64,000 nucleotides of DNA from Sphagnum magellanicum (Eukaryota; Streptophyta; Sphagnopsida; Sphagnales; Sphagnaceae). The DNA is taken from positions 1,673,958 to 1,737,957 of the forward strand of contig CM038913.1 in the NCBI GenBank assembly GCA_021904315.1, written 5' to 3'. Positions 8,700 to 56,339 of this stretch are shown in pieces. The notes below the pieces were generated by a model that did not search any database, was not told where the DNA came from, and saw only the letters and a program-made list of their open reading frames with translations. Each line of letters starts with the position of its first letter. Position 1 is the first letter of the stretch. Made by a program: the position numbers and the translations under genes.

Positions 8700-8992
8700 A
8701 TGCCTTGAGTTTATGAAAGATATAAGCAGTACCCAGTGCCCACAGCGGCCAGAGTTGAGGAAGTGAAAGAAAGAACGAAAGAAAGAAAGAAAGAGGCCGT
8801 TCTTGTATTTGTAAAGCAGTCTTTTGTGTTTTGTAACAGGAAAAACACAAGTCCTGAAGCAGAGTAGTACTACATGACCGTGAAGATTTAGGGAAAGACT
8901 CTCTTAGTTTACAAGTGGTGTATCTTAAAGGAAGTGTGTATAATTTTATTTTATTTTGTTTTCGTGATTGAAACGTTCTTGGATTTACAGCA
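8700..8992 (+). promoter_or_regulatory. 5' leader of SABATH gene A, TATA region not conserved
   Basis: From GATATAAGCAGTACC (about 8718) to the start codon this matches the leader of genes B and C, including the GAAA tetranucleotide run and GCAGTCTTTTGTGTTTTGTAAC. Just upstream the match stops: B and C have GTATAAAAAG and CTTTCACTTTAC, whereas A has unrelated sequence running into the GTGGAAAA array. I see no good TATA box at the equivalent place. The transcription start is inferred from conservation only. Confidence 0.5.
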
Positions 8993-10656
8993 ATGGTGAA
9001 ATCGGGAATGCAGGTGACCGACATGAAGCTGGGGAAAATTATTTCCATGGTGGGTGGTGATGGGGAATTCAGTTACCAGCGGATGGGGGTGCTACAAGCA
9101 TCTGCAATCAAGACGTTGGAGCCGTTAATGGCCGAAGCTGTTAAGCAGATGAGTCTGCCGAAACAAGGTCCCTTGCATATTGCTGATTTCGGTTGCTCCA
9201 CTGGGAGAAACTCCATAAGTTACATAAACTTCATCGTGAAGTGCATCATTGATAGGTACCTCGAAGCTAGCGAAAATAATGGTCATGTCACTTGCATGCC
9301 GGAGATGCTTGTTTCCTTCATGGACTTGCCTGGGAATGATTTCAATAACCTTGTTCAGCTATTGGCGTCAGAGGCCAAAAATGCCAAGGATTTAGCCGGA
9401 TCGGTCAATGGCGCCAATGTTGGAAGAGCTAGCAACTACTTCTCAACAATGATGGGAGGATCATTCTACAACCGTTTGTTGCCCAAGGAGAGCATGCATT
9501 TCGTAATATCGACGTTTTCCTTGCACTGGATGTCTCAGGTGAATTGATTGATGTTCAATTACTCCACCATTCTGATCCAATGTTTTGCGTCTTGAAGATT
9601 GCTAGCTCATGTACACAGGACTGTCTAGAAATATGCATTTTTAGATCAATTCACCATGCACATCTACACCAATTGAATATTAACAAATTTCACAATCGTC
9701 ATGGTGATTAACAAGTCATTGACGAGACTACTCTTGTTGGTTGTGCACATAGATACCTGCAGCAGTGACAGATCCGAATTCTCCACTTTACAACAAAGGC
9801 CGCTCTTGGATTCTTGGTAGCGACCCTGCTATTGCACGAGAGTTTGCTCAACAAAGCATGCTTGACTTGGACAACTTTCTCAGTAGTCGTGCTGTTGAAA
9901 TGGCACCTGGTGGTATTGTGTTCGCGTACTTCACTAGCCGTCAGGACGCAGCCAACCCTGAAAACCAAACCAACCCCGAATGTCACGATTGCTGTTTTGT
10001 TGGTACTGACTTCGAAAACGCTTGGAACGACCTCATTGACGACGTATGTAAAGAACACAATACTCTATGCTCTTGGTGAACCAATTTTTTGATGAAACAG
10101 AAGTAGAAAGTCACTGTCTCTGCCTTGCAAGACAAGGTGCAATCTTTCAAAAAGTTGTAGACTAAAAATCCATCGTGTTGTTCAAGTTCTCAATAGATTG
10201 ACGCTTCAAATCTTTTACAGCTTTTTGGATCATGGTTGTTTGCAAGCACAGGGAGTGATAACTGTTGAAACAAGAGACACATTTAACATCCCCATGTATC
10301 GTCGTTCAAAGGAGGAGGTGGAGGCATCAATCATCAAGTGTGGTGCCTTTGACATCCAATATTTGCAATTGTGGGATGACTACAGCATCTGCCCTCAGGA
10401 CGAACTAATGCACATGCTACAATTCCCCAAATCCTTCGCTACATTTTTGTCTGCATGGGTGAGGGCGATGCTTGGCCCAATCATGGAGGCACACATGGGC
10501 CGACACAACACCGACGAATTCTACGTTCGCTACCAGCGATGCATAACAGCTCGTGTCACGTCCCTCCTTTCCAACCCTAAAGCCCAACAAAAATACAAGA
10601 TTTTCAGTACGAGTTTCCTCCTTGTGGTCCTCAAGCGAAAAGTACTTAGTACCTAA
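8993..10656 (+). CDS. SABATH-family SAM-dependent carboxyl methyltransferase, gene A (3 exons)
   Basis: Proposed exons are 8993-9538, 9753-10043 and 10252-10656, giving 413 residues. Both introns (214 and 208 bp) are GT-AG and fall between codons. The first follows HWMSQ, a conserved SABATH intron site. Visible motifs: MVGGDGEFSYQ (19-29) in place of the usual GGxGxxSY start, Gln35 (equivalent to the carboxylate-binding Gln of salicylate methyltransferase), the SAM-binding ADFGCSTGRNS (64-74), DLPGNDFN (111-118), and SLHWMSQ (176-182) with the substrate-contacting Trp179. SABATH enzymes transfer methyl from SAM to carboxyl groups of small acids (salicylate, jasmonate, IAA, gibberellin, cinnamate) in the cytosol; the substrate cannot be read here. 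The ATG at 8993 was chosen because the frame upstream is not conserved; Met19 would also leave a complete domain. The copy is intact and the most diverged of three. Confidence 0.85.
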
Positions 10657-10890: not shown

Positions 10891-13415
10891 GGTGTTAGAA
10901 ACAAGGTGTCACGACATTGAGGCCTTGCTGAATTAAGAACTTGATAATATATGTTTGAATAATCATGAATGTGATGGATATTATTTTGTATTATTTGGTA
11001 GGGTAAATTTTGGGACATGGTCCAGTAATTTGAATGCAATGTGTATGGGTTTATGATTTGTTCAATAAGCTTCAGTTGATAAAAATGCATTGTTGTGATA
11101 GCACATTGGTCGATATGTGATCAATTTGAATGTTATAAATAGTGATTATTTTAGAGGACTATTTGTAGATCATATTTATTCATTAATTTTTGTAGTTCCA
11201 TTGATTGTAATGTGTTTGTTAACATGTCAATATTAAAATCCCCAATTATTATATTTGGACAATTTGTAGGTGGTTTTTCAAGAATAAGTTTTAAAATAGA
11301 GATGAAGTAATATACCTATATTTTTGGCAATTTATAAATTATAATTACATGTATAGCTTCTCATGTATTTTCATTGAAGGTTGTGATAATGAATTTCACA
11401 TTTGAATTTTTTATTAAAGCTGTGTTTGACAAAGAAACCATTTCATCATGAAGTATTGAATTGTTTTATGTTGATTATAACAATATAAGATGTGCAACTT
11501 GTTATTTAATATGGGATGGTGAATTTCTTGATAGTATAAATGTTTTTTATTTTTGTCTCATTTAAACAAAAATTATGTGATGCAAGCAAGTTTTGGTCCA
11601 CAAGGATGTCTCCGAAATGTAGATTTACTGAATGAGTGTTAAAGGATTGTATGATAATAAATTCTTTTCAATAAGATTTCAAGTTAGGAATTGTTAGTTT
11701 ATATTGTGTTGTTTTTAAATGTAACATTTCTTGATCAACAATGGAATATACATGGAAATTTTTGTTTGATATTGGGAAAAGTAAATATATAAGTGTTCTT
11801 TTGAATGAATATGAAATATCATTGTGTATGTGAGGCTATGTTTTGTTACACCGAATGGATCAAATGTTGAATGACCAAGAATCAACCTTTGTGCATGATA
11901 TATAATGCACCCAACAACTAATTAAAAAGGGAATTGCATACTTTGTGCATTTGTGATTTTCAAATCTTTTGTTGATTCCAATTTGAAGGTTTTGAAAATG
12001 TATTCATATTAATGATTTTGAAAAGGTTTCTGTATAATCTTTAAAATTTCCATCTACACCATTTACAAAGTCATTGATGTTATGTAATTTTCTACACATA
12101 ATTCAATTAACATATCTTTTTTAATTGATAATTCCTAATCAAAACTAATTGTTTGGCTTGGTACTATTCATAATTTGAAATGTGGAGGACATGTTTCAAA
12201 ATGAATGTCTTTTGCATGAAATGTGAATGTTTGACCTAGTGTGTTTTGCAATATGATTTTGTTATGTTCAATTATTTGGCATTTGTGTAAAGCAAATGTG
12301 GCAAAATATTATCTATTGGTGGTGTTCTTAGACAAATTTGATTAATAAAACTAATATCTCCAAAAGTATGTGATGTTATTGAAAACCTATTTAGAATATT
12401 AATGAATTGAAGATCATTTTGGCACATGTCTTGTTTTAATTTATAACATTTTATGTTTTCATGCCAAAGATGTGTCCCAAAGATATTGAATCCATCAGTT
12501 CTTGATTTGAAAACCTTTGAATCTTGAATTGGTGGAATTTAGTAAAAATCACTTGTCATTATAACATCAAGACCACCCATAAAGTTGTTATGTTTTCTGG
12601 ATTTATCTAGAGTCTATGGCTTCAAACCATATATATTTGTGCGCTTTAAATTTTCTAAATAGGAAAATACACATCTTTGATTGAATTACATATGAAAAGA
12701 CACATTGTTGATTTTTTCTTTCCAAAATGTTTTTGGTTTTTGTGCATTCATCTTCTCTACATTGGTGAGGAGGAGGAGACAAGGACTTAAGCTTTTGTGG
12801 ATTTAGATACTTTTATTGTGATTTTTGTTATAGATTTGAGTAGGGGGAGGAATCAAGAGGGAGAGAGGGATAGAAAGCTAGCTTGTTTTGCATGTTGTGT
12901 GCAAGCATGCTAGTTTTGGCAAACCCTTTCTGGTAAATTATATTCCAATGTTCAATTCAAAATGATTATGAAAACCATGATAATGTAAATAACTCAATGG
13001 GAATAGATATGGATCTAGCTATGGGTGCTCTTTTCATGTTATTTGGAAAAGGAAGTTTTTTTTCCAACAACCACCCATCACCTTGTAAATCCATCTTCAC
13101 TTCACCCATCATATATGGAACATAGGAAATGGATTATTAAAAGATTGATCCACAATTTCGGAAATGACTAGTTAGTGTGGAGTAATGGTAGATTATCATT
13201 ACTATTCATGATGGTGGTCATAATGACATGACTACACTAGTTTTCATTAATGTGTTTGTTTTTGTTTAAACTAGTCCTCTAAATTTGAAATTAACTCTTT
13301 TGTTTCCTTCTATAACATTTTTTCACATTCCTAGTTGTTGATAACTAACACCATGTGTATGATCAAGAAAAAGCAATGATGTTAGTCAGCAAGAAACCTA
13401 GACCTCTCGTGCCTA
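10891..13415. other. AT-rich intergenic stretch, nothing recognised
   Basis: Very AT-rich DNA with scattered small open frames and no family I can name. It is not obviously repeated elsewhere in the window. The composition changes sharply here compared with the first 10 kb. Confidence 0.4.
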
Positions 13416-13857
13416 CACTACAACAAAATGCATCCTAGTTCACTCTAAGTTTCATCAGATTTTGAATGAATTTGGACATTTTTACTTGGTGAAATTCTTT
13501 AACCCCTTAGTGAACGGGGACCAGTTGCTACGGACAATGAATTGTTTCAGAATTATCTAGTGAAACAAGGTTACTATCAAGTGAAATACAAATTTGCCTA
13601 ACCATTCACTTATTATTTAATTAATTAGCAACATGGAAATCAATTAAAATTAAATTATTTAATATATAATATTATTGATAATTTCATGATTTTTCAACCT
13701 ATGATTTATTGACATGTGTCACTACCTAGGCTAAGTTAAAAATCTAACCTATGTAAATAGGCCACATAATCAACCTAAGCACCTATTCTAGGGAATTAGA
13801 TAAAAAAATATTCAATCAATTTACCATTATTGACCATACACAACACCACTCATGAAG

Positions 13858-13918
13858 TTTGATCCTTTGACCTTTAGAATGGAGGTACACACTCTTACCA
13901 TCAAGCCAACCCACTTGT
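13858..13918 (-). repeat. tRNA-like (possible SINE head)
   Basis: The minus strand reads TGGCTTGATGG, resembling a Pol III A box, and then GGATCAAACTT, a weak B box, spaced about as in a tRNA. The match is partial, so this is a possible tRNA-derived SINE relic only. Confidence 0.25.
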
Positions 13919-14559
13919 TGTTACATTACATTTTATTTATCAAATACTTCATTTTAAACATTATAAAAACATAAACTTTGGAAATTCATATTTTATTGAA
14001 ATTTTGTTCAAATAAAATGATTCAAGTTTACTTTTTAAAAATTTCAATAATGCACATAATTATTCATTTCCTTTTGAAAGTGCAAAATCATTTGAACAAA
14101 AAAAAAGTTGAATATCATTATTCAATAACATTTCAATGACCATTCTTTTGGAAAAATGTTTAATAAATGGATAATATTTGTGTTAAAATAATAATACTAC
14201 TTATGATAAGCTACTTTCAATTATTATATGATTATTTTTCATTAATTTAAATTATCTCCCCCCACATTATTTACAATTATTTATGGTTATTCTAAATTAC
14301 TTTTAGTTATTTTAGCTCATTTCACCTTAAGCTATTTTCAGCTATTATAAGTTTTTTTGGTTATTCTATATTATTTCACTTTAAGTTAGTTACTTGCAAC
14401 TATTATAATTTTTTTTTTAATTTTAAATTATTTCATTTTAGGTTTTTTTTTATTATGTGAGGCTATTATTGGTTACTTTTGGTTATTGAAGGCTATTTCA
14501 CTTTAAGTTATTTTTGTCTATTATAGATTATTTCACCTTACATTATTTTTGGCAATATT

Positions 14560-15765
14560 AAACAATTCTAATATATGGCTATTAGTTGTTGTTTTATTGG
14601 GACTATTAGTGGTTATAAATAGCTATTGGTACCTATTCTACTGGTGGCTATTAATGGTTATTTTATTAGTGGCTATTAGTGGTTATTCTATTACTAGTTA
14701 TTGGTGGCTATTGGTGGCTATTGGTGGCTATTTTATTAATGGCTATTGATGGATATTCTATTGGTGGACAATGGTGATTATTGATGGTTATTACATTAAT
14801 GAATATGAGTGGTTATTTTATTAATGGCTATTGGTGGTTATTTTATTAATGACTATTAATAGTTATTCTATTAGTGGATATTGGTTGTTATTCTATTAAT
14901 GGTTATTGGTGGCTATTTTATTAATTATTGTTAGTGGCTATTCTATCAATGATTATTAGTAGTTATTATATTAGTGTCTATTGGTTGTTATTCCATTAAT
15001 GGCTATTGGTGGCTATTCTATTAATGACTTTTAAAAGTTATTATATTAGTGGCTATTGGTTGTTATTTTATTAATGGCTATTGGTAGTTATTCTATTAAT
15101 GGCTATTAATGGTTATTCAATTAATGGTTATTATATTACTAGCTATTGGTGGTTATTATAGTAATGGTTATTGGTGGATATTTTGTTAGTGGATATTGGT
15201 GGTCAGTAATAGTTATTATATTAAGGGCTATTGGTGACTATTACATTAATGGCTATTAGTGGATATTTTGTTGGTGGATATTGGTCGTCAATAATGGTTA
15301 TTATATTAAGGGCTATTGGTGACTATTACATTAACGGCTATTGGTGGATGTTTTGTTAATGGATATTAATGGTTATTAATTGTTATTGTATTAATGGTTA
15401 TTGATGATTATTAATCGTTATTGTGTTAATGACTATTGGTGGTTATTAATTGTTATTATATTAGTCGCTATTGGTGGCTATTTTATTAATGGTTATTGGT
15501 GAATATTCTATTGGTGGATGTTGTTGGATATTAGTGGTTATTACTGGCTATTATATTAGTGGCTATTAGTGGATATTTTATTAGTGGATATTAATGGTTA
15601 TTAATGTTATTATATTAATGGCTATTAGTGGCTATTTTATTAATGGTTATTTGTGGTTATTCCATTACAAGCCATTGGTGGCTATTGATGGTTATTCTAT
15701 TGGTGTTATCAATGATTATTTTATTATAAATTATTGTTTGATATTCTATGTTATAATATCATAGC
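14560..15765. repeat. CTATTAATGG / CTATTGGTGG minisatellite array (unit 1)
   Basis: About 1.2 kb of imperfect 10-12 bp words (TATTAATGGC, TATTGGTGGC, TATTAGTGGT) arranged in longer blocks of roughly 50-75 bp separated by TTCTATTA or TTTTATTA. The plus strand is G+T rich with little C. The array is transcribable in theory, but its short open frames (Leu/Val/Ile/Tyr-rich) are repeat artefacts. The same array occurs at 44585-45295 in a shorter form. Confidence 0.9.
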
Positions 15766-16082
15766 TATTGGTAGTTATTATATTATAAGGTATTTTAAAT
15801 TATTTTTCATAGTTTATTCTTTTATATTTTAAGTTGTTTTACCTTAGGTCATTATATTATATTTTAAATTATTTTAAGTTATTATACCTAGAATAAAATA
15901 ATTTATAATAACGTAAAGTAGAATGACCATGAAATTTTTTAAATATAACTTGAAATAACATATACTAACTTAAAATAAAATAACTTAAGGTATAACCTAA
16001 GGTTAGTTGAATATTTTAATTAAAAATAATTTAAAATACCTTATAATATAATAACTACCAATAGCTATGATATTATAACATA
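15747..16082. repeat. Perfect 61-bp inverted repeat with 214-bp spacer
   Basis: Bases 15747-15807 (starting TATGTTATAATATCATAGC) return as an exact reverse complement at 16022-16082 (ending GCTATGATATTATAACATA). The arms carry the same 61 bases as far as I can read, and are AT-rich. The spacer is itself partly self-complementary. In unit 2 the left arm is kept nearly unchanged (about 45297), but the right-arm position (about 45570-45640) is quite different. Confidence 0.85.
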
Positions 16083-16399
16083 TAATAGTTTAAGGTACAA
16101 TAATTTATAATAACATAAGGTATAAATTAGAATAACTAAAATAGCTCAAAATAATATACGGTATATCATAAAGTAACATATATAGAATATTTTTAAAAAC
16201 ATACAAATAAAACTATTTACTACAATAAATTATAATAGTGAATTATGTTAATTAGTAATGAAACATGATGTTTACATACTCATATTATAGTGAAATAACT
16301 TTCACCAGGATGAAATCAATCAAATGTAATGAAATTATTTCATTTAAAAAATCCCATAGTGATTTAGGCTAATGAACTACACCCATTTTTGTGGTAGTC

Positions 16400-17535
16400 A
16401 ATTAGTACCAGTGTACAACATGAAATTGTAAAAAAAAACTTGGTGCGCATGAATTTGAGTCTCTTCAACTTGGGCAATTCAAAGGATTTATAATTGGAAA
16501 ATGGTTCAACTAGACTTCAAAATTTACACCCTTAATGATTTGACATGGAGTGGAAAAGACATGCACCTTTTACTTTTCAACTTCAAAAAATATATATCTT
16601 ACTTTTCATTGCACAAGATGTACAACATCTTGCACAACAAGTGTATAGATGGTCTAAAACCAAACTCTAGTGCTCCAAAGTCCCCGTGTTGATAAACTAA
16701 GTTGTTTTGTACAAAAGAGAATGTATATAAATTTTGGCACCAAGATCTAGGATCATAACATACATTATGTATAATGTTAGATGTAAGTTTCAATCATTAC
16801 CAAGTATTTACCATTCTTGCCACACAAGTCATAGAAAGGAATGGGATATGCATGGAGTGTGAATCCAAATGCACCCACTCTATCTCAAATAAGAAGCAAA
16901 TTGAACATTGCATGGTCTTCATGTTCAACTCTACACAGAGAGGAGCTAAGAGGTAGAAAATGGATTTTTATGAAGGGGGTGGCGACTCCTTTTACCTATA
17001 ATACACAACAACAAATAGAATACTCACCATGAACCTAAAGAACATTAGAATAAAAATTAATTACTACGATTCAAAATAACCTCAGGATTAAATCATTGTC
17101 CCATTTTGCACATTATTTTTATATTAAAACATGGGGGGAGAGAAAACAAAATGTAAGGGCAAATAGGTCGAACACTATAGCAAAAATATTATCTCCAACC
17201 TCTAAGCAATTTTAATCTTATTTTTAATTTTGTTTTTTCTTGTGTGAAAGCATATTCTCTATGTGAGCTTTTAAAATGTCCGCCAATGGCCTTTGTAACC
17301 CTACAATGTGTTTAGCAACTAATACAAACACAAATTTCACTTCCCACTAGAAGAAAGGAAACAAGACCATGAGAGGCTTCTTCTATTTTTCCAGCAATAA
17401 GCATTTTGTCAAGGACACCTAAACAAAATCCCAAATAAAATGTATTATTTATCAATGTGTACATGTAGACCCATGTTACAATGTTAACCTATTTTGGACA
17501 TTTCAATGTCAATAGAAACCACATGGTTATTAAAT
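16400..17535. other. Unit spacer between two CACTA-like elements, unit 1
   Basis: About 1.1 kb repeated at 45970-47106 with roughly 95% visual identity. Small open frames on both strands (plus 16501-16692, minus 16599-16793) are conserved only as far as the DNA is, with indels between copies, so I do not call them genes. No known family seen. Confidence 0.6.
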
Positions 17536-18112
17536 CACTACAAGAAATTTTAGTTCTTTTTACTGGGAACCTTTGTTGGAAAAAACCCCCATATGGTTTT
17601 TTTGCCCCCATGTTCAACTTGACCAAAGTGCCATTTTGGACAAGTTGATTTGGATTCGATTGTTTTGACTGGGTCCCTTTGGTTGGTATTTTTGACTGGG
17701 CTTTTTTTACTAAACCACCATGACAATAATATAATTTGGGCAACAACCAAATATATATATATTTAAATTATTTTTTATTAAAAATTAATATGAAAAATTT
17801 AATTAATTAATTACCCTACCTATTCTACTCTACCTTACTTTAACCTACTTACCAACCTACCTTATTAATAAACTTAATAATTAATGTCAAAAATAATTTA
17901 TTTATTTACTTACCAACCCTATGTCCTAGGCCTAAACTAAGCCACCTAACTTAGCCATCCAGGTTAAACCATGCCACTTAGGCTAAGCCAAACCCCCTAT
18001 AGGCTAAGCCTCATAAGCTAGGCTAAGTAGCTTAGGCTAGGTGGTTAAATAGGCTTTGCAACTTAGTCTACCTAATTATATCACCTAAATAACCAAGGTA
18101 GCCTAAGTTGCA

Positions 18113-18183
18113 AGTGTGGGGACTTGAACTCTTCGCCTCCACATTGAGAAGTCAAATCCTTAACCATTGCACCACCACCCCAT
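18113..18183 (-). repeat. tRNA-derived relic with Pol III A and B boxes (unit 1)
   Basis: The minus strand carries TGGTGCAATGG, an A-box match, then 33 bases, then AGTTCAAGTCC, a B box differing from the consensus at one base. Acceptor and T stems do not pair well, so a working tRNA is unlikely; a tRNA-derived SINE head or tRNA pseudogene fits better. The copy in unit 2 keeps the A box and has TCC changes near the B box. Confidence 0.5.
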
Positions 18184-18289
18184 CAGGTGATTTTTTTTGG
18201 ACAACATATTATCGTAAACATGATTTTGGATTAAAATATTATAATCAACTTCCATGAATTTTTTTCAACATATTACATTAAATGAACTT

Positions 18290-19560
18290 GAATTTTTTTA
18301 CACTACTTACAAAAATAGGTAGGTTATAAATAGGTTAACCTAGGTAGGTAGGAAATACCTATTAATAAATGCATGTACTTAGGTAACATGTAAGTTATAA
18401 TCTATTAAACCTTATAAGCACCTACTAAGTCTATGTTTATACCTACTTATGCTTATGATATTTAATAGGCTATGTAGGTACCTACCAACCTATAATTAAT
18501 AGATGTAGCTTAGGCATATTAAGTAAGTAACCTAGCTTATTAAGTAAGTATAGGGTTAAACAACCTACCTAATACTAGGCTAAACTACCTACTTAGTAAC
18601 CTAGGTGGCCTAGCCTAGATCAGTGACATACATACCTAGTAAACCTAAATGACTTAGGTAGCTTAAATTACATTACATACCTACATAATAGGCCTAGGTT
18701 AGGTTAATTTAAACTACTTGAGTTATGTACCTACCTAAGTAACCTAGGTTAGGCTATGTGCTTACCTAGTAGGCCTAGGTTAAATTAACCTAAGCTACAT
18801 AAGCTATACCTACCTAATAGGCCTAGGTTAGGCTAACCTAGGCTACCTAAGTTATGTACCTACCTAAATAGCCTAAGTTAAGTTACATACCTACTTAGTA
18901 GGCTTAGGTTAAGTTAATTTAAACTACCTAGGTTAAGCTACATACCTACCTAATAGGCTTAAATAACCTAGGTTAAACTACATACCTGCCTAAGTAACCT
19001 AGGTTATGATACGTACCTACTTGGTAAGCCTAGGTTAAATTACTTACTATGTACACTTGGGTGGCCTAAATTAGGCTACATACGTACCTAATAGGCTTCA
19101 GTGACCTAGGTTAAACTACTTACCTTATACGCCTAAGTGGCTTATGCTATGTACGTAACTACCAATTAAACTTTGCTAACCTAGGTTAAACTACCTTATT
19201 CTTAGTATGCCTAGGTGGCTTAAACCAACCTAATTAATAAGATAAGCTACCTACATACTAGGCCTAGGTTAATAGGCTAATAAGCTACCTACATGGCTAA
19301 TAGGTCTACCTAGTCAGCCTAGGTCACCTACGGCACCTACTTAAAAGGCTTACATTACCTAGTTATAAGCTACTTAGTATTCCTAAGTTACATATTAAGT
19401 AATTTATTAAATAGGTTTAGGCTAAATTATCTAGCTAAGCTACTAGTTAAGTTATAACTTAACAAATAATCTACTAACCTATTAATTATGCGACTAGAAA
19501 GGTAGTCTAAGCCTAGCTTAACCTATTATCTAGGTTAAGTTAGATAAGTAGCTTAGGTTT
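18290..19560. repeat. CCTAGGTTA / ACCTACCTA word-rich region (unit 1)
   Basis: About 1.3 kb made almost only of CCTAGGTTA, TAGGCTAA, ACCTACCTAA and GTAGGTA words and their complements, in both orientations. The palindrome CCTAGG recurs very often. The words are not a clean tandem repeat but a patchwork. Nearly all of it (about 18370-19490) is absent from the otherwise matching unit 2 element. Confidence 0.85.
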
Positions 19561-20419
19561 AAAAAATAGGTTTAGTCATCAAATGAATATGGTTCATTTG
19601 ACTAAATGCCAAATCATAATGGTTAATTTGACTAAGGGTTAAATTTGGATGGTCAATTTGATTAAACCCTATCGATTCAATATGGCCAATTTGATTAAGT
19701 CATGGCCATTTTGATGGACATTTGTCCATTTTGATAAATCTTTAGCTTAACACTTGGTCAAAAAGGTCACTTTAGTCAAATGTATTGGTCAAATGTAACA
19801 TGTGTTTTCATGCCCCAAACCTTTAGTCAAAATGGACATACCCCTGGGTCAATGTCGACATTTTAGTCAAGTTGGCCTTCTAAAAACCACATTTTCTTGT
19901 AATGGATGGAGATAGAACTTCTACTTTGAACTTGAAAAAAGAATCCTTAAACACATCAGGCTATAAAGGTGTCAATACGATGAATCGACAAAAGATCATT
20001 AAAAAAGTGTTACTAAAATGATAAACAACCCCATGATGAAAAAAAATTTGGAAAACAAGACACCAATTACGTATTCAAACTATTAAAATATTACAAAAAG
20101 ATGTAAACACTTCTACAATTTCTTTCACCAAGGTACCAAATATTTAAATGCTCTAAAAAAGAAAGGAAAACAAACATAATATGCCCTAATAATTATGTGA
20201 AAAAAAAAAACCATTAGCTTTTGAATTTTGTATAATTAGGAGTTTAAAACCAAAGGCTACAATGTGGTGTTTCACCATACCTCTTTGTTAGCAACTTTAT
20301 TGTTGCAAAAAAAACGGCAATGATAAAACTCCAATAATGCTACCACTACACAATCATTACGTCAATCTACAATGACATCAAACAAGATACCAAGGTGTTC
20401 ATTTTATAGCATATGCGCT

Positions 20420-22042
20420 AGAAGGGTTCCAAAGTGATCGAAGTTTTTGTGAACATTGAGCAAAAATTGCGCCTCTAGATTTGGGCCCCATGTAGTCGAA
20501 AAATTACGTACCCTTTTGGATCAACTTCAAGCATCATTTCACAAACATTTCCCTTGAATTAATGTAGTTTATCTTTGACACTGCTACATGCATAAATATT
20601 TCGAGCTAATATTTTACCCTTGGTTTTAATAATGTGCATTCCAATAAAAAATAATGAAAATTCCCCAAGAAATTGATAATTGCCAAAGGTGGCCCTACAC
20701 CATGAAAAGACATGCACACCTTGTACCCATGTGCCCCACACTTTTTAATAACACTCCATATGATTGAATATAGTTTTGAAGAGATAATGTCATGGAAAAC
20801 ATTGTCCACAAGTCCTACAAACTGATGACATGAAAAAATGAGAAAAAAAATACTTGACTAAGGGTGATAAACACATGAATAAAAACACGGGCATGTGGAC
20901 CAACAACCTTGAAATGGAATTGTGGGCTGAAGTGCCAAGTGTCAAAGTTTTGGCACCCTCCAACAATTGGACCTTGCCATTCACCATGTATAGAACAACA
21001 CATCTCTTGTGGATAAATTTGGCAAATGTAAAGGGATCGAAAATGAAGTTGGAAGTCTTGCCATGACATCTAGAATACACCCTCTACAACATGGTGTAAT
21101 CATAAGAATCAATTAGGAGACATCTTAGTAAGGCCAATTGAGATGTGGTTGCAAAATTGGTTGAACACCAACATGAAATAATTTGCAAAAATGTGGTGGT
21201 CAACACATTTGCAAGATTTGCACTTCAATGTGGAAAATCACGAATAGAACCACCTCTAGATAATGCCCCTACAAGAAATGATGCCTTGAACAATTATTTC
21301 ACTAAGCAACATTCGTGATGTCCACATATATATTATTGTTCAAATAACCTCCACATTAAATAAAATGCCAAATGTGTTTGTACCAATTGTACTTGAGGTC
21401 TATATCGAGTCCATTCTATAGACAACTTTAACCAAAGGCCATTCCACATAACCTCATTGACCCATGGATTGCAAATTTAAACAAGCTTGTGTCCATCTAC
21501 CTCCTGGACTTGGAATAAAAGGAATGAAACTCAATACACACCTCATACACAAACCACATACACACCTATTAAAAATATAATTAAGTGGTAGTATAAACAT
21601 AATGAAAAGGAACACAACAAATCCTGTGCAACACCACAAGGTCAGCAATGGCAAAAATAGGTACAAACAAACCATTCTAACCTACAACAAGGAGTATCCA
21701 TGGCCTTGCATGATTCCACTTGATGAAACATGCACATCAGAACTTAAAACACTATCAGCTGTAAGGAAAAACCCTTCTTGTTTCTACAACCAAAGATGGC
21801 CACTCACAAAATCCAACTATGAAGATTCATGAAACATGTCAATTTCTTCTCCCGGTCAAATCAACAAGTGCATCATGTACCACACCCCCTTCCAAAGCCT
21901 CATAGGAACCATACAATTTTGCATGAACTTTCTCCAAGATTGAAACCCATAATTCATTCCCGTTCTGACTTGTTGGAAAAGCTAGCTTACCTTGGCCTTC
22001 ACAAGGAATCCAATCATCCATAACCATTGGAATCTGCTCTCC
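20420..22042 (-). pseudogene. DEK1: DEK1 (phytocalpain) 3' gene fragment, decayed, unit 1
   Basis: On the minus strand, pieces in the right order match the C-terminal half of the plant calpain DEK1, a plasma-membrane cysteine protease needed for epidermal fate. Seen in order: VMDDWIPCEGQGK and NELWVSILEKVHAKLYGSYE (22042-21839); LDFVSGHLW, KQEGF and SSSGIMQGHGYS with the catalytic His (to about 21690); EVDGHKLV and CNPWVNEVMWNG with the catalytic Asn (21515-21410); VVEGVF then SWQDFQLHFRSLYICQIYP and GGCQNFDTWH to HVFITLSQ (about 21100-20854); FFIGMHIIKTKGK (about 20700-20570); CEMMLEVDPKGY and MFTKTSITLEP at the C-terminus (to about 20420). Intron-like gaps with GT/AG edges remain, so it is a DNA-level copy. 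It has internal stops (for example TAG where SWQDF is preceded by Trp), a frameshift after DLTG, and lacks the exon with the catalytic Cys. Not a working protease. Confidence 0.85.
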
Positions 22043-22553
22043 CTATGATACAAATTATATTTAGATAAGAAAATATGTTTAAATACCTATAAAATTTTAC
22101 TAGAATCAACCATTTAATGATTGGATTTTTTTTCACAATCTTGAAGGTTAAACAAATTTAATTTTTACAACATGACTTCATCAACTCATTGCTTAGAATG
22201 AAACATGAAGAAATGTATAATGATGTATGAAATTTATTGTTCAAAACTAATTGTTAAATAATTTGAAAAAAAATAAAAACTATTTGATACACATGTTTGC
22301 ATCATGCATTACACCATATACAAAAATATCTAGTAATACATTATATTATCCATCATTTTGAATTTTAAATTTTTAAATGAAAAAATAAATAAAATGAAGA
22401 TAAAATCATTATTTTTAATTTTGAGATTTTTGAATTGACATTAAATAACCTCTGATTAATATAGGGTTTTTTCCCTCAGTCATGAGGTTCTAGTATTTGT
22501 TTTATATCACATACTCTCCGATCAATAAATGTTAACATTCTATTACCTAGTAA

Positions 22554-26338: not shown

Positions 26339-26604
26339 CTCTTTCACTTTACGGAAAGATATAAGCAGTACCTACAGCAGCCTAGCTGAGGAAAGTGAAA
26401 GAAAGAAAGAAAGAAGCTGTTCTTGTATTTGTATAGCAGTCTTTTGTGTTTTGTAACACAAATAACACAACTCCTGACACCGAGTAGGACTCCATGACCG
26501 CGAAGATTTAACAAAAGACTCTCTTAGTTTACAGTGCTGTATCTCAGAGGAAGTGTGTCTAATTCATAATTTTGGGTTTTGTGATTGAAAGTATCCTGCA
26601 GGAC

Positions 26605-28237
26605 ATGGACCAGGCGAAATCTAATTCCATGGTGGGTGGTGATGGGGAATTCAGTTACCAGCGGATGGGGGTGCGACAAGCACACGCAAGCAGGAGGTTG
26701 GAGCCCTTAATGGCCGAAGCTGCTAAGCACATGAGTCTGCCGGAACAAGGTCCTTTGCATATTGCTGATTTCGGTTGCTCCACTGGGAGAAACTCCATAA
26801 GTCACATGAACTTCATTGTGAAGTGTATCACTGACAGGTATGTCGAAGCTGGCGAAAATAATGGTCATGTCACTTGCATGCCAGAGATGCTTGTTTCCTT
26901 CATCGACTTGCCCGGGAATGATTTCAATACCCTTATCCAACTATTGGCATCAGAGGCCAAAAATGCCAACGATTTAGCTACATCAATCAATGGAGCCGAT
27001 GTTGGAAGAGCTAGCAGCTACTTCTCAGCAATGGTGGGAGGATCATTTTACAATCGTTTGTTGCCAAAGGAGAGCATCCATTTCGCAATATCGATCTTCT
27101 GCTTGCACTGGATGTCTCAGGTAAATTGATTGGTGTTCAATTACTCCACTAGTCTGATCTAATGTGTTTCTTCTTGAAGATCGCTAGCTCATGTACACAT
27201 GACTACATAAAAATATGCATTTTCAGATCAAATCACCATGCACATCTACACCAATTGAATACTAATGAATGTCGCAATTCTCGTGTTGATTAATTAGTCA
27301 TTCACAGAACTACTATTGCTGGTTGCGCATGTAGATACCAGCAACAGTGACAGATAAGAGTTCTCCTCTTTACAACAAAGGCCGCGCTTGGATTCTTGGC
27401 GGCAACCCTACTATTGCACGAGAGTTTGCTCAACAAAGCATGCTCGACTTGGACAACTTTCTCAATAGTCGTGCTGCCGAAATGGTGCCTGGTGGTATTG
27501 TGTTCGCGTCTTTCTTTAGCCGCCATGACGCAGCCAACCCTGAAAACCAAGTCAACCCTGAATGTCGCCATCGTTTTTCTGTTGGTCCTGACTTCGAAAG
27601 CGCTTGGAACGACCTCATTGACGATGTATGTAAAGAACACGATACTCTATCCTCTCGGTGAACCAATTTTTTGATGAAACAAAACTAGAAAGCCATTGTC
27701 TATGGTCTGGAAGACTAGGTGCAATCTTTCTAAAAGTTGTAGACTAAAATTTCATGCTGTTGTTCAAGTTGTCAATAGATTGACACTTTAATTCTTTTGC
27801 ATATTTTGGGATCCCCTTGTTTGCAAGCACAGGGAGTGATAACTACTGAGACAAGAGACACATTTAACCTCCCGATCTATGCCCGCTCAAAGGAGGAGGT
27901 GGAGGCAGCAATCATCAAGTGTGGTGCCTTTGACATCCAATATTTGCAATCGCCGGTTGACGAGGACATGTGCCCTGAGGACGAGTTGATGCACATGCTA
28001 CAATTCCCCAAATCCTTTGCTACGTTTTTTTCCTCATGGGTGAGGGCAATGACTGGCCCGAGCATAGAGGCACACATGGGCCGACACAACACCGACGAGT
28101 TCTTCATTCGCCACCAGCGACGCATAACAGCTCGTGCCACCTCCCTCCTTTCTGACCCTAAATCCCAACAAGAATACAGGTTTTTCAGGGCGACTTTCCT
28201 CCATGTGGTCCTCAAGCGCAAGGTCTTTAGTACTTAG
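26605..28237 (+). CDS. SABATH-family SAM-dependent carboxyl methyltransferase, gene B (3 exons)
   Basis: Proposed exons 26605-27120, 27335-27625 and 27833-28237 give 403 residues. Both introns (214 and 207 bp) are GT-AG, frame 0 and collinear with gene A. Motifs: MVGGDGEFSYQ (9-19), Gln25, ADFGCSTGRNS (54-64), DLPGNDFN (101-108) and CLHWMSQ (166-172) with His168-Trp169. The start is the ATG at 26605 (MDQAKSNSMVGG); the frame upstream has no earlier ATG. Compared with A, the first 18 residues differ (MDQAKSNS against an 18-residue leader). Closely related to C (about 95% by eye). A full promoter with TATA box lies upstream, so this copy is the most likely to be expressed. Substrate unknown; the family allows salicylate, benzoate, cinnamate, jasmonate, IAA or gibberellin types. 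Confidence 0.88.
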
Positions 28238-43366: not shown

Positions 43367-43889
43367 GATGGATATAAAACTTCTACTTTGAACTTGTAAA
43401 ACCAATCTTCAAAGATATTAGGCTATAAGGGTGCCAATAGGATGAATCGACAAAGGGGCATTACGCCAAGATGAAAAAAAAGTTTAACACTACTAAAAAT
43501 ATAAACAACCCCATGATGCGAAATGTTTTGGCAAGCAAGACACCAACTATGTATTCAAACTACAAAAATATAAAGATGTAAACACTTCTGCAATTTTTTT
43601 CACCTAGGTAGCAAATATTTAGATGCTTTGAAAAAAAACAAAATAAAAAAACATAGTATGCCCTAAGAATTATGTGAAAGAACAAAAACCCTTAACTCTT
43701 GAATTTTGTACAATCAACAATTTAAAACAAAGGCTATAATATGGTGATTGACCGTACCTCTTTGTTAACAACTTTATTGTTGCAAAAAAGATGGCAATGA
43801 TAAAACTCCAATAATGTTACCATTATGCAAACTTCACACCAATTTACAGTGACATCCAACAAGATACAAAGGTGTTCATCTGGTAGCAT

Positions 43890-44580
43890 TTGTGCTAGAG
43901 GGGTTCCACAATGATCAAAGTTTTTGTGAACAGTGATCGAAGTTTTTGTGAAAAGTGAAAAAAAATTGGGCCTCTTGATTTGGACCCCATGTAATCAAAA
44001 AATTGTGTACCCCATTGGATTAACCTCAAGCATCATTTCACAAAACATTTCCCTTGAATTAATGTAGTCTATCCTTGATACTGCTTCATGCATAAATATT
44101 TTTAGCTAATCTTTTACCTTCGGTTTTAATAATGTGCATGCCAATAAAAAAAAGTGAAACTTCCCCAACAAATTGATAATTGCCAAAGGTGGCCCTACAC
44201 CATGAAGAGAAATGCACACCTTGTACCAATGTACCCCACACTTTTTAATAACACTCAATATGATTGAATATAGTTTTGAAGAAATAATGTCATGGAATAC
44301 ATTGTCCACAAGCTTTACAAAATTGATGACATGAAAAAAGGAAAGAGAAAATACCTAAGTAAGGGTGACAAACGCATGAATAGGAACACAAGCATGTGGA
44401 CTAATAGCCTTGAGATGGAATTGTGGGCTGAAGTGCCAAGTGTCAAAGTTTTGGCACCCACCAATAGTTGGACCTTGCCATTGACCATGTACAAAGGAAC
44501 ACATCTCTTGTGGATAAATTTGGCAAATGTAAAGGGATTGAAAATGAAGTTGGAAATATTGCCATGACATCTAAAATACA
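43890..44580 (-). pseudogene. DEK1: DEK1 3' fragment (fourth copy, truncated)
   Basis: Matches 20420-21080 of the unit 1 pseudogene. Minus-strand readings: SWQYFQLHFQSLYICQIYP, GGCQNFDTWHFSPQF and HAFVTLT (44570-44355), then the C-terminal pieces to about 43895. The upstream DEK1 exons (DDWIPC, GHGYS, NPW) are missing: at 44580 the sequence jumps into the CTATTAATGG array. In this copy and that at 61.5 kb the reading says SWQYF and CSFVHGQW where units 1 and 2 differ, so those two share a branch. Confidence 0.8.
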
Positions 44581-45969
44581 TCCAACATTATTGGGGCTAT
44601 TGGTGGTTATTAATAACTATTGGAACCTATTCTACTAGTGGCTATTAATGGTTATTTTATTAGTGGCTATTAGTGGTTATTCTATTAATGGTTATTGTTG
44701 GCTAATATATTAATGGCTATTAGTAGTTTTTTTATTGGTGGCTCTTCTATTAATTGCTATTGATGGATATTCTATTGGTGGATAATGGTGCTTATTAATG
44801 GCTATTATATTAGTGGCTATTAGTGGTTATTCTATTAATGGCTATTGGTGGTTATTTTACTAATGACAATTAATAGTTATTATATTAATGGATATTAATT
44901 GTTATTCTATTAATGGCTATTGGTGGCTATTTTATAATGGTTGTTGGTGGCTATTCTATTAATGATTATTAATAGTGATATATTAATGGTTATTGGTTGC
45001 TATTTTGTTAATGGCTATTGGTGGTTATTCTATTAATGAGTATTAAAAATTATTATATTTAATGGCTATTAGTTGTTATTTTATTAATGGCTATTGGTGG
45101 CTATTTTATTAATGATTATTAAAAGTTATTATTTTAGTGGCTATTGGTTGTTATTTTATTAATGGCTGTTGGTGGCTATTCTATTAATGACTATTAAAAA
45201 TTATTATATTAGTGGCTATTAATGGCTATTGATGGTTATTATATGTTATATTATGACTATTGGAGATTATTCTATTATAAATTATTGTTTGATATTCTAT
45301 GTTATAATATCATAGGCTATTGGTAGTTATTATATTATAAGGTATTTTAAATTATTTTTCATAAGTTATTTTTTTAATTTTAAGTTGTTTTACCTTAGGT
45401 CATTATATTATATTTTAGATTATTTTAAGTTATTATACTTAGAATAAAATAATTTATAACATCATAAAGTATAATGACCTTGAAAAACTTAAAGTATAAT
45501 TTGAAATAACATATATTAACTTAAAATAAAATAACCTAAGGTATAACCTAAAGTTAGTTGAATAATTTAATTTATAATAATTTAAAAACTTATAATAAAC
45601 TAGTTAAGATACCTTAAGGTAAAATAACATATAATAGTTAAAGGTACAATAATTTATAGTAACCTATAATAACTTTTAATAACATCAGGTATAAATTAGA
45701 ATAACTAAAGTAATTTAAAATAATATAGGGTATATCATAAAGTAACATATATAGAATATTTTTAAAAACATAAAAATAAAATTATTTATTACAATAAATT
45801 ACAATAGTGAATTATGTTAATTAGTAATGAAACATGATGTTTACATAGCGATATTATAGTGAAATAGCTTTCACAAGGGTGAAATTAGTAAAATGCAATG
45901 CAATTATTTCATTTTTAAGGTCCCATAATGATTTAGGCTAATGAACTACACCCCATTTTTGTAGTAGTC
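44581..45969. mobile_element. CACTA-A right part, unit 2 (left end missing)
   Basis: Matches 14.58-16.40 kb. The right end reads TTTTTGTAGTAGTC; the left terminus was lost at the junction at 44580. Confidence 0.5.
44585..45295. repeat. CTATTAATGG / CTATTGGTGG minisatellite array (unit 2)
   Basis: About 0.7 kb of the same words as 14560-15765, shorter and differently arranged. The array begins right at the break with DEK1 sequence at 44580. Confidence 0.9.
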
Positions 45970-47106
45970 AATTATCACCAAGGGTAAAACATGAAATTGT
46001 AAAAGAGACTTGGTGTGCATGAATTTCAATCTCTTCAACTTGGGCAATTCAAAGGATTTATAGTTGGAAAATGGTTCAATTAGATTTGAAAATTTACACC
46101 CTTAATGATTTGACATGGAGTGGAAAAGACATGCACCTTTTACTTTTCAACTTCAAAAAATATATATCTTACTTTCATTGAACAAGATGTACAACATTTT
46201 GTACAATAAATGTATAGATGGTCTAAAACCAAACTCTAGTGCTCCAAAGTCCCCATGTTGATAAACTAGGTTGTTTTGTACAAGAGAGAATGTATATAAA
46301 TTTTGGCACCAAGATATAGAATCATAACATACATTATGTATAGTTTTAGATGTAAGTTTCAACCAATACCAAGTATTTACCATTCTTGCCACACAATTCA
46401 TAAAAAGGAATGGGATATGCATGGAGTGCGAATCCAAATGCACCCACTAAGTCTCAAATAAGAAGCAAATTGAACATTGAGTGGTCTTCATGTTCAACTT
46501 TACACAAAGAGGAGGTAAGAGGCAGAAAATGGATTTTTATGAATGGGGGTGGCGACTCCTTTCACCTATAATACACAACAACAAATAGAATACTCACCAT
46601 GAACCTAAAGAACATTATAATAAAAATTAATTAATACGATTCAAAATAGACTCAAGACTAAATCATTGTCCCATTTTACACATTATTTTTTATATTTAAA
46701 CATGGGGAGGGAGAAAACAAAATGTAAAGGCAAATAGGTCGAACATTATAACAAAAATATTATCTCCAACCTCTAAGCAATTTTAATTTTATTCTTATTT
46801 TGTTTTTTCTTATGTGAAAGCATATTCTCTATGTGAGCTTTTAAAATGTCTACCAATGGCCTTTGTAACTCTACAATGTGTTAGGCAACTAATATAAACA
46901 CAAATTTCACTTCCCACTAGAAGAAAGGAAACAAGACCAAGAGAGGCTTGTTCTATTTTTCCAGCAATAAGCATTTTGTCAAGGACACCTAAACAAAATC
47001 CCAAGTAAAATGTATTATTTATCAATGTGTACATGTAGACCCATGTTACATTGCTAACCTATTTTTGGACATTTCAATGTCAATAGAAACCACATGGTTA
47101 TTAAAT
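45970..47106. other. Unit spacer, unit 2
   Basis: Copy of 16400-17535. The longest open frame (minus 46153-46443) is interrupted in unit 1, which argues against a gene. No family recognised. Confidence 0.6.
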
Positions 47107-48265
47107 CACTACAAGAAATTTCGGTTTTCTTTACCAAGAACTTTTGTTAGAAAAAACCCCCATATGGTTTTTTTGCCCCCATGTTCAACTTGACCAAAAT
47201 GCCATTTTGGACAAGTTGATTTGGATTCGATTGTTTTGACTGGGTCCCTTTGGTTGGTCTTTTTGACTGGGTTTTTTTACTGAACCATTATGACAATAAT
47301 ATAATTTGGGTAGCAACCAAAAATATATATTATTTAAATCATTTTTATTAAGCCTTAATATGAAAAAATTAATTAATTAATTACCCTGCCTATTCTATTC
47401 TACCCTACTTTAACCTACTTACCAACCTACCTAATTAATAAACCTAATAATTAATGTCAAAAATTATTTATTTATTTATTTACCAACCCTATATCCTAGC
47501 CCTAAATTAGGCCACCTAACTTAGCCATCTAAGTTAAACCAAGCCACTTAGGCTAGGCCAAGACCCCTAGGCTAAACCGAACCTCGTAGGTTAGGCTAAG
47601 TAGGCTAGGTTAAGTGGTTAAATAGGCTTTGCAACTTAGTTTACCTAATTAGGTCACCTAAATAGTCAAGGTAGCCAAGGTTGCAAGTGTGAGGACTTGA
47701 ACTCCTCACCTCCACATTGAGAAGTCAAATCCTTAACCATTGCACCACCACCCCATCAGGTGATTTTTTTTGGACAACATATTGTCATAAACATGATTTT
47801 GGATTAAAATATTATAATCAACTTCCATGAATTTTTTTCAACATATTACATTAAATGCACTTCAATTTTTTTACTCTATTGACAAAAATAGGTAAGTTAT
47901 AAATAGGTTAACCTAGGTAGGTAGGGGGTACCTATTAATAAATGCCTAGGCCTAACTTAACCTATTATCTAGGTTAGGTTAGATAGGTAGTTTAGGTTTA
48001 ACAAGTAGGCTCAGTCATCAAATGAATATGGTTAATTTGACTAAACCCTATTAATTCAATATGGCCAATTTGATTAAATCATGGCCATTTTGACTAGATC
48101 TTTAGCTTAACACTTGGTCAAAAAGGTCACTTTAATCAAATGTATTAATCAAATGTAACATGTGTTTTTCATGCCCCAAACCTTTAGTCAAAATGGACAT
48201 ACCCTTAGGTCAATGTTGACATTTTAGTCAAATTGGCCTTCTAAAAACTACATTTTCTTTTAATG
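47107..48265. mobile_element. CACTA-B, unit 2, shortened
   Basis: Starts CACTACAAGAAA and ends TTTCTTTTAATG, 1159 bp. It lacks about 1.1-1.2 kb present in unit 1 (about 18370-19490), i.e. nearly all of the CCTAGG-word region. The joint lies near 47943. Confidence 0.65.
47687..47757 (-). repeat. tRNA-derived relic (unit 2)
   Basis: Copy of 18113-18183, with the A box TGGTGCAATGG kept and the B box now AGTTCAAGTCC with neighbouring changes. Confidence 0.5.
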
Positions 48266-48784
48266 GATGGAGATAGAACTTCTACTTTGAAGTTGAAAAA
48301 AGAATCCTCAAAGACATTACGCTATAAAGGTGCCAATACAATCAACCAACAAAAGGATATTAGAAAAGTGTTATTAAAATGATAAACAACCCCATGATTA
48401 AAAACAATTTGGAAAACAAGACCCCAATTACATATTCAAACTATAAAAATATTACATAAAGATGTAAACACTTCTACAATTTCTTTCACCAAGGTACCAA
48501 ATATTTAAATGTTTTAAAAAAAAAGGAAAACAAACATAATATGCCCTCATAATTACGTGAAAAAAAAAAAACCATTAGCTTTTCAATTTTGTATAATTAA
48601 GAGTTTAAAACCAAAGGCTACAATACAGTGATTCACCATACCTCTTTGTTGGCAACTTTATTGTTGCAAAAAAAATGGCAATGATAAAACTCCAATAATG
48701 CTACCACTACGCAAAAAATATGGCAATCTACAATGACATCCAATAAGATACCAAGGTATTCATTTCATAGCATTTGCGTTAGAA

Positions 48785-50405: not shown

Positions 50406-50910
50406 ATACAAATTATATTCAGATAAGAAAATATGTTCAAATACCTATAAAATTTTACTAGAATCCACCATTTAGTGATTGGATTTTTTTTCACAATCTT
50501 GAAGGTTAAACAAATTTGATTTTTACAACATGACTTCATCACCTCATTGCTTAGAATGAAACATGAAGAAATGTATAATGATGTATGAAATTTATTGTTC
50601 AAAAATAACTATTAAATAATTTGAAAAAAAAAAAAATTGTTTGGTACACATGTTTGCATCATGCATTACACCATATACAAAAATATCCAATAATACATAA
50701 TATTATCCATCATTTAAAATTTTATTTTTTGAAATGAAAAAATAAATAAAATGAAGATAAAATCATTATTCTTAATTTTGAGATTTTTGAATTGACATTA
50801 AATAACCTCTGATTAATATAGGGCTTTTTCCCCTAGTCATGAGGTTCTAGTATTTGTTTTATATCACATACTCTCCGATCAATAAATGTTAACATTCTAT
50901 TACCTAGTAA

Positions 50911-53900: not shown

Positions 53901-54210
53901 AAGTTCTCAAAGAAAAGTATGTTGGAAATTTCAAAAACTCAACTAATTGAAAACACACTTTTCATCCATTTTTCTTAAATCAAAATTTGTTGCACTTTAT
54001 GTGTAACTTACCATCAACTCAATGGAGTGCTCCATTACTTCATAATGAAAGTTTAAAAAGTTTGAAATAGGTTTTTTCATTTGTATACCATAAATATGAT
54101 TGTGACTACATGTTTGACCACTTTTTTGGCATACTTTACCATCTTTCCACCCTTGCGACTAAAATTTAGTCATAAAAAATAATTAAAAATACGTGTTTTT
54201 CTTCTAGTAG
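50911..54210. mobile_element. E1, unit 2
   Basis: Copy of 22554-25829 with the same ends (CATTAATAGAAATAAGCC and GTTTTTCTTCTAGTAG). Contains indels, including absence of the segment matching about 24.95-25.06 kb and an extra piece near 51.79-51.90 kb. Confidence 0.45.
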
Positions 54211-54259
54211 CAAGGGCCATCACCCTAGCGAACCAACTACACCTAAGCTACGACATAAT

Positions 54260-54358
54260 GCAACTATATGGACATGAGCACAAATAACATGATGATCATG
54301 AGCACAAATGACGTGATGATGGCACCATTATGAAATGCCAAAACGGTGGTATAAAAAG
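54260..54358 (+). promoter_or_regulatory. Promoter region of SABATH gene C, shortened
   Basis: TATAAAAAG at 54350-54358 is kept. Directly upstream, AAAACGGT is joined to GGTATAAAAAG: relative to gene B, 385 bp are missing between two ACGGT words. All four W-box cores of B's upstream region are therefore lost. A 28-bp tandem duplication (ATGAGCACAAATGACGTGATG type) lies just before the deletion, near 54274-54325. Confidence 0.55.
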
Positions 54359-54625
54359 ATCTTTCACTTTACAGAAAGATATAAGCAGTACCTACAGCAG
54401 CCTAGCTGAGGAAAGTGAAAGAAAGAAAGAAAGAGGCTGTTCTTGTATTTGTATAGCAGTCTTTTGTGTTTTGTAACACAAATAACACAACTCCTGACAC
54501 CGAGTAGGACTCCATGACCGCGAAGATTTAACAAAAGACTCTCTTAGTTTACAGTGCTGTATCTCAGAGGAAGTCTGTCTAATTAATAATTTTGGGTTTC
54601 GTGATTGAAAAGTATCCTGCAGGAC

Positions 54626-56272: not shown

Positions 56273-56339
56273 TAGCTTCCCATTCTTGAATCATGAAACC
56301 TCTTAGTAAACATATCCAATACCTACTCTAATACCGAAG

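What the first reader, a model, noticed from the sequence alone, without database searches (positions are those of the whole stretch)
20420..22042. Multiple decayed copies of the DEK1 calpain 3' end, carried in a transposon-rich unit
DEK1 is normally a single-copy essential gene. Here its last exons, with intron gaps kept, occur four times (20.4-22.0, 43.9-44.6, 48.8-50.4, 61.3-62.5 kb), always on the minus strand, between CACTA-B and E1. The catalytic His and Asn parts are present, the Cys exon is absent. Retained introns mean DNA-level capture, as in Pack-type CACTA elements or Helitrons, not retroposition.
Basis: partly seen in the sequence, partly recalled or inferred. Interest (0 to 1): 0.75.

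Follow-up and report, generated by a model that had tools for sequence, protein, structure and literature searches.

The report
Jumping DNA carrying broken DEK1 pieces
In what is probably a peat moss, a rolling-circle (Helitron-like) jumping element picked up the tail end of the developmental gene DEK1, and broken copies were later multiplied as passengers of a duplicated methyltransferase gene cluster; it looks like genomic debris with a readable history rather than a new function.

Summary
In detail: decayed DEK1 calpain 3' ends lie on the minus strand at 20.4-22.0, 43.4-44.6, 48.3-50.6 and 61.3-62.7 kb, with introns kept and the Cys exon missing. The genome has two DEK1 loci with open calpain exons (C18, C13) and nine decayed fragments. 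Eight fragments form one clade next to the C18 gene; all seven that reach it share one breakpoint, 173 bp into the intron after the Cys exon. The captured piece is C18:12552743-12556646 (3.9 kb, about half of it past the coding end). In the window and at C18:8.4 Mb it lies between two dispersed-repeat ends: a 5' hairpin motif, and a 3' hairpin followed by CTRR and T. Homology between these two sites stops at or within about 20 bp of those ends. The carrier is therefore most likely a non-autonomous Helitron-like element. It is not the CACTA, which inserted later: its site is empty at C18:8.4. Copies on C7 and C19 then grew by segmental duplication with SABATH methyltransferase genes. The fragments show no codon constraint and decayed largely by C-to-T change, above all at CHG sites, as expected of silenced transposons. 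New member of a known kind; moderate interest.

The parts
12594..22493 (+). Helitron-like carrier element, copy a, with nested insertions; host T at 12593 and T at 22494
   Evidence: Both ends belong to dispersed repeats; homology to the insertion at C18:8405515-8410092 begins at 12590-12596 and ends at 22475 by BLAST, 18 bp short of the 3' end
12594..12853 (+). 5' end module (TYTYTGGATTTATCC...)
   Evidence: 34 dispersed places after dropping 8 of 42 rows (listed); 7 left ends aligned; hand-made consensus folds with z -5.4, this copy only z -0.4
22251..22493 (+). 3' end module ending hairpin-TT-CTAG, followed by T
   Evidence: end letters; fold z -5.0 here, -2.3 and -0.5 in two other copies
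13271..13412 (-). outer part of the captured DNA downstream of DEK1; left chimeric junction near 13271
   Evidence: C18:12552744-12552888 at 80%; junction shared with C18:8406226
16392..17535 (-). captured DNA downstream of DEK1
   Evidence: C18:12553131-12554314, 75%, to 17512; to 17535 against C18:8.4
19905..22250 (-). captured DEK1 3' end: last exons and introns plus nearest downstream DNA; right chimeric junction 22250
   Evidence: C18:12554324-12556644, two pieces at 80%
20427..22042 (-). decayed DEK1 exons, copy a
   Evidence: Pfam Peptidase_C2 for 21851-22042
13413..16393 (.). nested repeat with CACTA-like ends (motif recalled) and an internal 25-bp array; may be two elements
   Evidence: high-copy boundaries near 13416 and 16398; end letters; array
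43367..44583 (-). DEK1 copy b, cut off at 44583; its unit begins at 42748 inside a CACTA remnant
48266..50850 (-). DEK1 copy c (48266-50603) with the carrier's 3' end to 50850
61273..62960 (-). DEK1 copy d (61273-62734) with the carrier's 3' end to 62960
44595..61269 (.). segmental duplicate of 15051-34407 (holds DEK1c and SABATH3), lying between b and d
8972..10656 (+). SABATH methyltransferase gene 1 (long ORFs)
   Evidence: about 84% DNA identity to genes 2 and 3
26563..28237 (+). SABATH methyltransferase gene 2 (long ORFs)
   Evidence: PF03492; PDB SABATH enzymes E 1e-24
54605..56272 (+). SABATH methyltransferase gene 3 (long ORFs)

Best explanation
A non-autonomous Helitron-like (rolling-circle) element captured, at DNA level, 3.9 kb from the C18 DEK1 gene: from 173 bp into the intron after the Cys exon, through the last exons, to about 2 kb past the coding end. 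The element lies in at least two unrelated sites, C18:8.4 Mb and an ancestral site on C7. Shown: both chimeric junctions shared, homology stopping at or near the repeat ends, flanks differing. Inferred: that a rolling-circle transposase moved it. On C7, CACTA-type elements then inserted into the captured DNA, and the site was multiplied together with SABATH methyltransferase genes by tandem and inverted segmental duplication, with one copy reaching C19 (direction inferred from the tree). The fragments show no codon constraint and decayed largely by C-to-T change, above all at CHG sites, which points to methylation as a silenced transposon (inferred from the mutation pattern; methylation was not measured). 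They most likely do nothing.
For: Single origin: 8 of 9 fragments form one clade (support 100), sister to the C18 gene (96). 7 of these 8 reach the 5' break and share it, C18:12556640-12556646; b is cut off before it. Carrier ends: 34 left and 43 right dispersed places (rows as listed; the window's own relatives, hits outside the module and second pieces were dropped). 3 left-right pairs lie within 8 kb on the same strand in the right order, 0 on the same strand in reverse order, 0.015 expected with rough contig sizes. 3' ends at 11 places: 7 of 11 CTRR then T, 9 of 11 YTRR then T, read partly by eye. Host T before the 5' end in 7 of 7 copies, two of which share flanks. Two insertions: window and C18:8.4 share the element, not the flanks. 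Helitron_like_N: 150 candidates scored of 576, all 150 over the cut-off. No codon constraint: 8 of 8 fragment pairs tested (of 28 possible) p 0.17-0.8, against p 7.5e-16 for the two genes. C-to-T at CHG 41-49% against CHH 11-16% in 8 of 8 fragments; C18 gene's own branch CHG 4/73, CHH 9/410, and C13 branch CHG 10/78, CHH 46/493.
Against: Only 2 of 7 left ends begin TC, 5 begin TT. The 3' hairpin stands 2 nt, not 10-12 nt, from CTRR, and the host context is T|T, not A|T. No empty site was found or tested for either insertion. A search with a whole short member (C7:12.75 Mb) scored 40 of 217 candidates, and apart from itself each matched only its right part, so no second full-length short copy was seen. 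One listed Rep domain lies near a listed family 3' end in the right order (C7:6484268 and 6491220); 0.116 expected by chance. The 3' ends of C18:8.4 (CTGA then G) and C7:12.75 Mb (ambiguous) do not fit cleanly. Hairpins: the window's 5' copy folds no better than shuffles (z -0.4), one of three 3' ends likewise (z -0.5). At C18:8.4 only 74 bases of left flank were read. CG decay (36-48%) is not clearly above the C13 gene's branch (6/19).
Confidence: 0.8

Rival explanations
1. Plain segmental duplication: an interchromosomal DNA copy landed by chance between old repeats and spread only by duplication; the end modules are coincidental.
For: Later copy growth on C7 and C19 is segmental. No empty site was found. 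Plants copy DNA during break repair (general knowledge).
Against: Homology between two unrelated sites ends at or within about 20 bp of family termini on both sides, and the two end modules pair elsewhere in the same order.
Confidence: 0.14
2. Pack-type CACTA capture: a CACTA transposase mobilised the DEK1 piece between CACTA ends.
For: CACTA-type elements lie beside the fragment in copies a, c and C19 and, as remnants, in others.
Against: The element at 17.54-19.90 kb lies inside DEK1-derived DNA; its site is empty at C18:8407756-58 and beside the C18 gene, with an imperfect 3-bp duplication in the filled copies. C18:8.4 holds the DEK1 piece without it.
Confidence: 0.03
3. Retroposition of a DEK1 transcript.
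For: Several dispersed decayed copies exist.
Against: Introns and about 2 kb of downstream DNA are copied, and the break lies inside an intron.
Confidence: 0.005
4. The fragments are kept because antisense or small RNAs from them tune the DEK1 genes (not exclusive with the best explanation).
For: The eight fragments share 3 to 80 21-mers with the C18 gene stretch, longest run 45 nt, and 0 to 15 with the C13 gene. CHG decay suggests they are or were methylated.
Against: No constraint seen, TE-like decay, no expression data here; the 21-mer counts include introns and downstream DNA.
Confidence: 0.05

Closest known systems
Helitron1-type elements with captured gene fragments (maize and others, recalled; Mothra of rice, passages of PMC4683698)
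   Same: DNA-level capture of gene pieces, non-autonomous, 3' hairpin and CTRR followed by T
   Different: Hairpin 2 nt rather than 10-12 nt from CTRR; T|T rather than A|T context (PMC4683698 allows T|T sometimes); a hairpin motif also at the 5' end; absence of a target duplication not tested
Helitron2 / Helentron / HINE and DINE-1 (passages of PMC4067079 and PMC5148889)
   Same: Hairpin motifs at both ends, a short inverted repeat between the 5' terminus and a 3' subterminal site (seen by eye), T-rich insertion context; gene capture reported for Helentrons
   Different: 3' end is CTRR as in Helitron1; no autonomous partner with these ends was shown
Pack-CACTA and Pack-MULE elements (recalled)
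   Same: Carry host gene fragments with introns
   Different: Those have terminal inverted repeats and target duplications around the captured piece; here the CACTAs are later nested guests

Membership tests
Helitron1 | 3' hairpin followed by CTRR and host T | tested here: met
   7 of 11 places CTRR+T, 9 of 11 YTRR+T; the hairpin is 2 nt from CTRR, closer than the usual 10-12, and folded better than shuffles clearly in 1 of 3 tested, z -5.0, -2.3, -0.5
Helitron1 | 5' end begins TC | tested here: inconclusive
   2 of 7 begin TC, 5 of 7 TT; C-to-T decay could explain it
Helitron1 | inserts between A and T | tested here: not met
   5' host base T in 7 of 7 copies, two sharing flanks; so it is called Helitron-like, not filed as Helitron1
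Helitron1 | no target-site duplication | not tested
   no empty site was found or searched with joined flanks
Helitron2 / Helentron | asymmetric terminal inverted repeat and hairpins at both ends | tested here: inconclusive
   by eye, 7 bp match within C7:12.75 Mb (TCTGGAT / ATCCAGA), degraded in the other copies; consensus 5' hairpin z -5.4, window copy z -0.4
Helitron2 / Helentron | autonomous partner with Rep/helicase sharing these ends | tested here: inconclusive
   Rep domains abundant; 1 ordered pair with a family 3' end, 0.116 expected
Pack-CACTA | gene fragment lies between the CACTA element's own ends | tested here: not met
   the CACTA is nested in the captured DNA, empty site present
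Segmental duplication of a gene cluster (later growth) | long collinear paralogous blocks with shared flanks | tested here: met
   C7 and C19 blocks of up to 9.1 kb, 76-95% identity after a 400-bp and 76% filter, SABATH genes included

The most novel reading that the evidence does not exclude
The element-borne DEK1 fragments, probably methylated and spread over C7, C18 and C19, feed small RNAs that act in trans on the DEK1 genes, tying three-dimensional growth control in a moss to a transposon.
Probability: 0.05. Interest if true: 0.75.

Novelty: new member of a known kind. Interest (0 to 1): 0.4.

Why it matters
It is a layered example of probable rolling-circle gene capture in (probably) a moss: donor gene, both chimeric junctions, two insertions, nested guests and later segmental growth can be read from one genome. 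It shows how pieces of a developmental gene can multiply merely as passengers of a methyltransferase cluster, and warns annotators that such blocks are not extra DEK1 genes. The CHG-directed decay is a trace of methylation history that bisulfite data could test.

Tried and rejected
Pack-CACTA as carrier: rejected by the empty site. Retroposition: rejected by introns and downstream DNA. A neighbouring DEK1 as source: rejected for the window, whose contig C7 holds no open DEK1; the C18:8.4 fragment is on the same contig as the C18 gene, 4.1 Mb apart. A possible recipient site at C9:7238693 was fetched but not analysed. The C5 fragment (422 bp) is 78% identical to both genes and outside the clade, so it is treated as a separate piece. 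b and d as two halves of one copy fits the map, but the tree joins b with C7:1396 and d next to them (support 99 and 96), so this is left open. A check for a target duplication at the nested LTR retrotransposon found no clean repeat at the boundaries assumed. Paper searches: Helitron with Sphagnum (7 listed), Helitron with moss and gene capture (4 listed), Helitron with Physcomitr and captured (10 listed of 11), DEK1 with calpain and pseudogene (3 listed), DEK1 with single copy (6 listed): no title or abstract opening describes this; these were seen as listings only. Passages were seen of PMC4067079, PMC4683698, PMC5148889, PMC9946827 and PMC4285852. The species name Sphagnum divinum is inferred from assembly size alone.

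Full report
Setting. The window is C7:1673958-1737957 of a 439.0-Mb genome in 31 contigs. Its size equals that given for Sphagnum divinum (439 Mb; passage of PMC9946827); the name is my inference from size alone.

Observation. The four DEK1 blocks are real (for independent calpain matches). A genome search with a recalled 411-aa DEK1 calpain region gave 46 matches, 46 of 46 candidates scored. Grouped by hand, they make two loci with open calpain exons, C18:12554847-12556950(-) and C13:10723334-10725482(+), and nine decayed fragments: six on C7 (1396, 1446 and window a, b, c, d) and one each on C19, C18 (8.4 Mb) and C5. The C18 hit over the Cys exon carries two stops, presumably because it runs past the exon; the exon itself reads GDCWFL...FCIQ without a stop. 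Among the fetched stretches that exon is found only in the two open genes. The N-terminal parts of the genes were not examined.

One capture. Eight of the nine fragments match the C18 gene better than the C13 gene, in introns and downstream DNA as well. In a maximum-likelihood tree of 11 sequences they form one clade (support 100) next to the C18 gene (96). C18:8.4 branches first, then two C7 groups, (a,(c,C19)) and (((b,C7:1396),d),C7:1446). Seven of the eight reach the 5' break and stop at C18:12556640-12556646, 173 bp into the intron. On the other side the C18-derived DNA ends at C18:12552743, which is 13271 in the window and C18:8406226. Both chimeric junctions are thus shared by two unrelated sites.

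The carrier. Outside the captured DNA lie two dispersed-repeat pieces. The left one starts at 12594 (40 of 88 candidates scored); the right one runs from 22254 to about 22500 (40 of 133 scored, 40 of 217 scored). In one search, 34 left and 43 right places were compared: three left-right pairs lie within 8 kb on the same strand in the right order, none in the reverse order, 0.015 expected by random placement with rough contig sizes; opposite-strand pairs were not counted. One of the three, a short member at C7:12.75 Mb, was used as a query; no other scored candidate matched both of its ends. Homology between the window and C18:8.4 begins at 12590-12596 and ends at 22475, 18 bp short of the 3' end. 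Beyond it, 74 bases of C18 left flank were read, and about 1.1 kb of right flank gave only a 47-bp hit elsewhere in the window. Left ends read T|TYTYTGGATTTATC in seven copies, two with TC; L061 and L064 share flanks. Right ends are a short hairpin, TT, then CTRR and T in 7 of 11 places and YTRR and T in 9 of 11. Folds were mixed: z -5.0, -2.3 and -0.5 for three 3' ends, -5.4 for a hand-made 5' consensus and -0.4 for the window's own 5' end. This is the anatomy of a rolling-circle element with traits of both Helitron1 and Helitron2 as described in PMC4067079, PMC4683698 and PMC5148889 (passages). DEK1 lies antisense to the element.

The CACTA elements. Window 17536-19904 interrupts the captured DNA. 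C18:8.4 and the C18 gene have the site without it, and filled copies carry AAT/GAT on its sides. Copies a, c and C19 hold it at the same place, and C7:1446 keeps its right end, so it came after the C7 insertion and before the C7 groups separated. A second repeat with CACTA-like ends (recalled motif) fills about 13413-16393.

Later growth. SABATH genes (PF03492) occur on C7 in two arms of opposite strand, on C19 and, six times, on C10, where one search found no DEK1 piece. Blocks holding SABATH genes and DEK1 pieces are collinear over up to 9.1 kb between the arms and C19. C19 nests within the a/c group (support 94), which suggests that it came from C7. No SABATH match was listed at C18:8.4 (28 of 28 candidates scored).

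Decay. Between the two genes substitutions concentrate at third codon positions (0.047, 0.039, 0.191; p 7.5e-16). In 8 of 8 fragment pairs tested, of 28 possible, they do not (p 0.17-0.8), nor between the C18 gene and C18:8.4 (p 0.36). Against the base shared by both genes, C-to-T changes hit 41-49% of CHG, 36-48% of CG and 11-16% of CHH sites in the eight fragments. Controls: C18 gene's own branch CHG 4/73, CG 1/19, CHH 9/410; C13 branch CHG 10/78, CG 6/19, CHH 46/493. So the CHG excess stands out and the CG excess does not clearly do so. Changes shared by six long fragments: CHG 20/43, CG 5/13, CHH 21/286; after separation, window a CHG 12/51, CG 0/14, CHH 42/451 and C18:8.4 CHG 14/52, CG 2/17, CHH 27/417 (all). 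Methylation itself was not measured.

Judgement. Capture by a Helitron-like element followed by passenger growth explains what I saw; the assignment rests on end anatomy, without an empty site. It is a new instance of a known process.

Noticed in passing
window 29888-33403: LTR retrotransposon with 98.7% identical LTRs and a gag domain, nested between blocks that are contiguous at about 60.28 kb
   Followed up: partly
window 44583-44595 and 61269-61273: DEK1 pieces b and d overlap by about 490 bp (92.5%) on either side of a 16.7-kb duplicate; mechanism unexplained, an assembly join is not excluded
   Followed up: partly
C5:11203269-11203690: A ninth, 422-bp DEK1 piece about 78% identical to both genes and outside the main clade; probably a separate, older event
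   Followed up: partly
C10:7790012-7867299: Six further SABATH genes at 82-85% identity on one strand, with no DEK1 piece there
   Followed up: no
window 14300-15700 and 44600-45300: Arrays of a 25-bp TATT-rich unit, the first inside the repeat with CACTA-like ends
   Followed up: no
window 12930-13270: Lower-copy stretch inside the carrier between its 5' module and the DEK1 flank, with short hits on C9 and C12; perhaps a second captured piece
   Followed up: no
window 90-1617, minus strand: Long ORFs that look by eye like a PP2C phosphatase gene (recalled); Pfam gave no match for the 1087-1617 ORF
   Followed up: no
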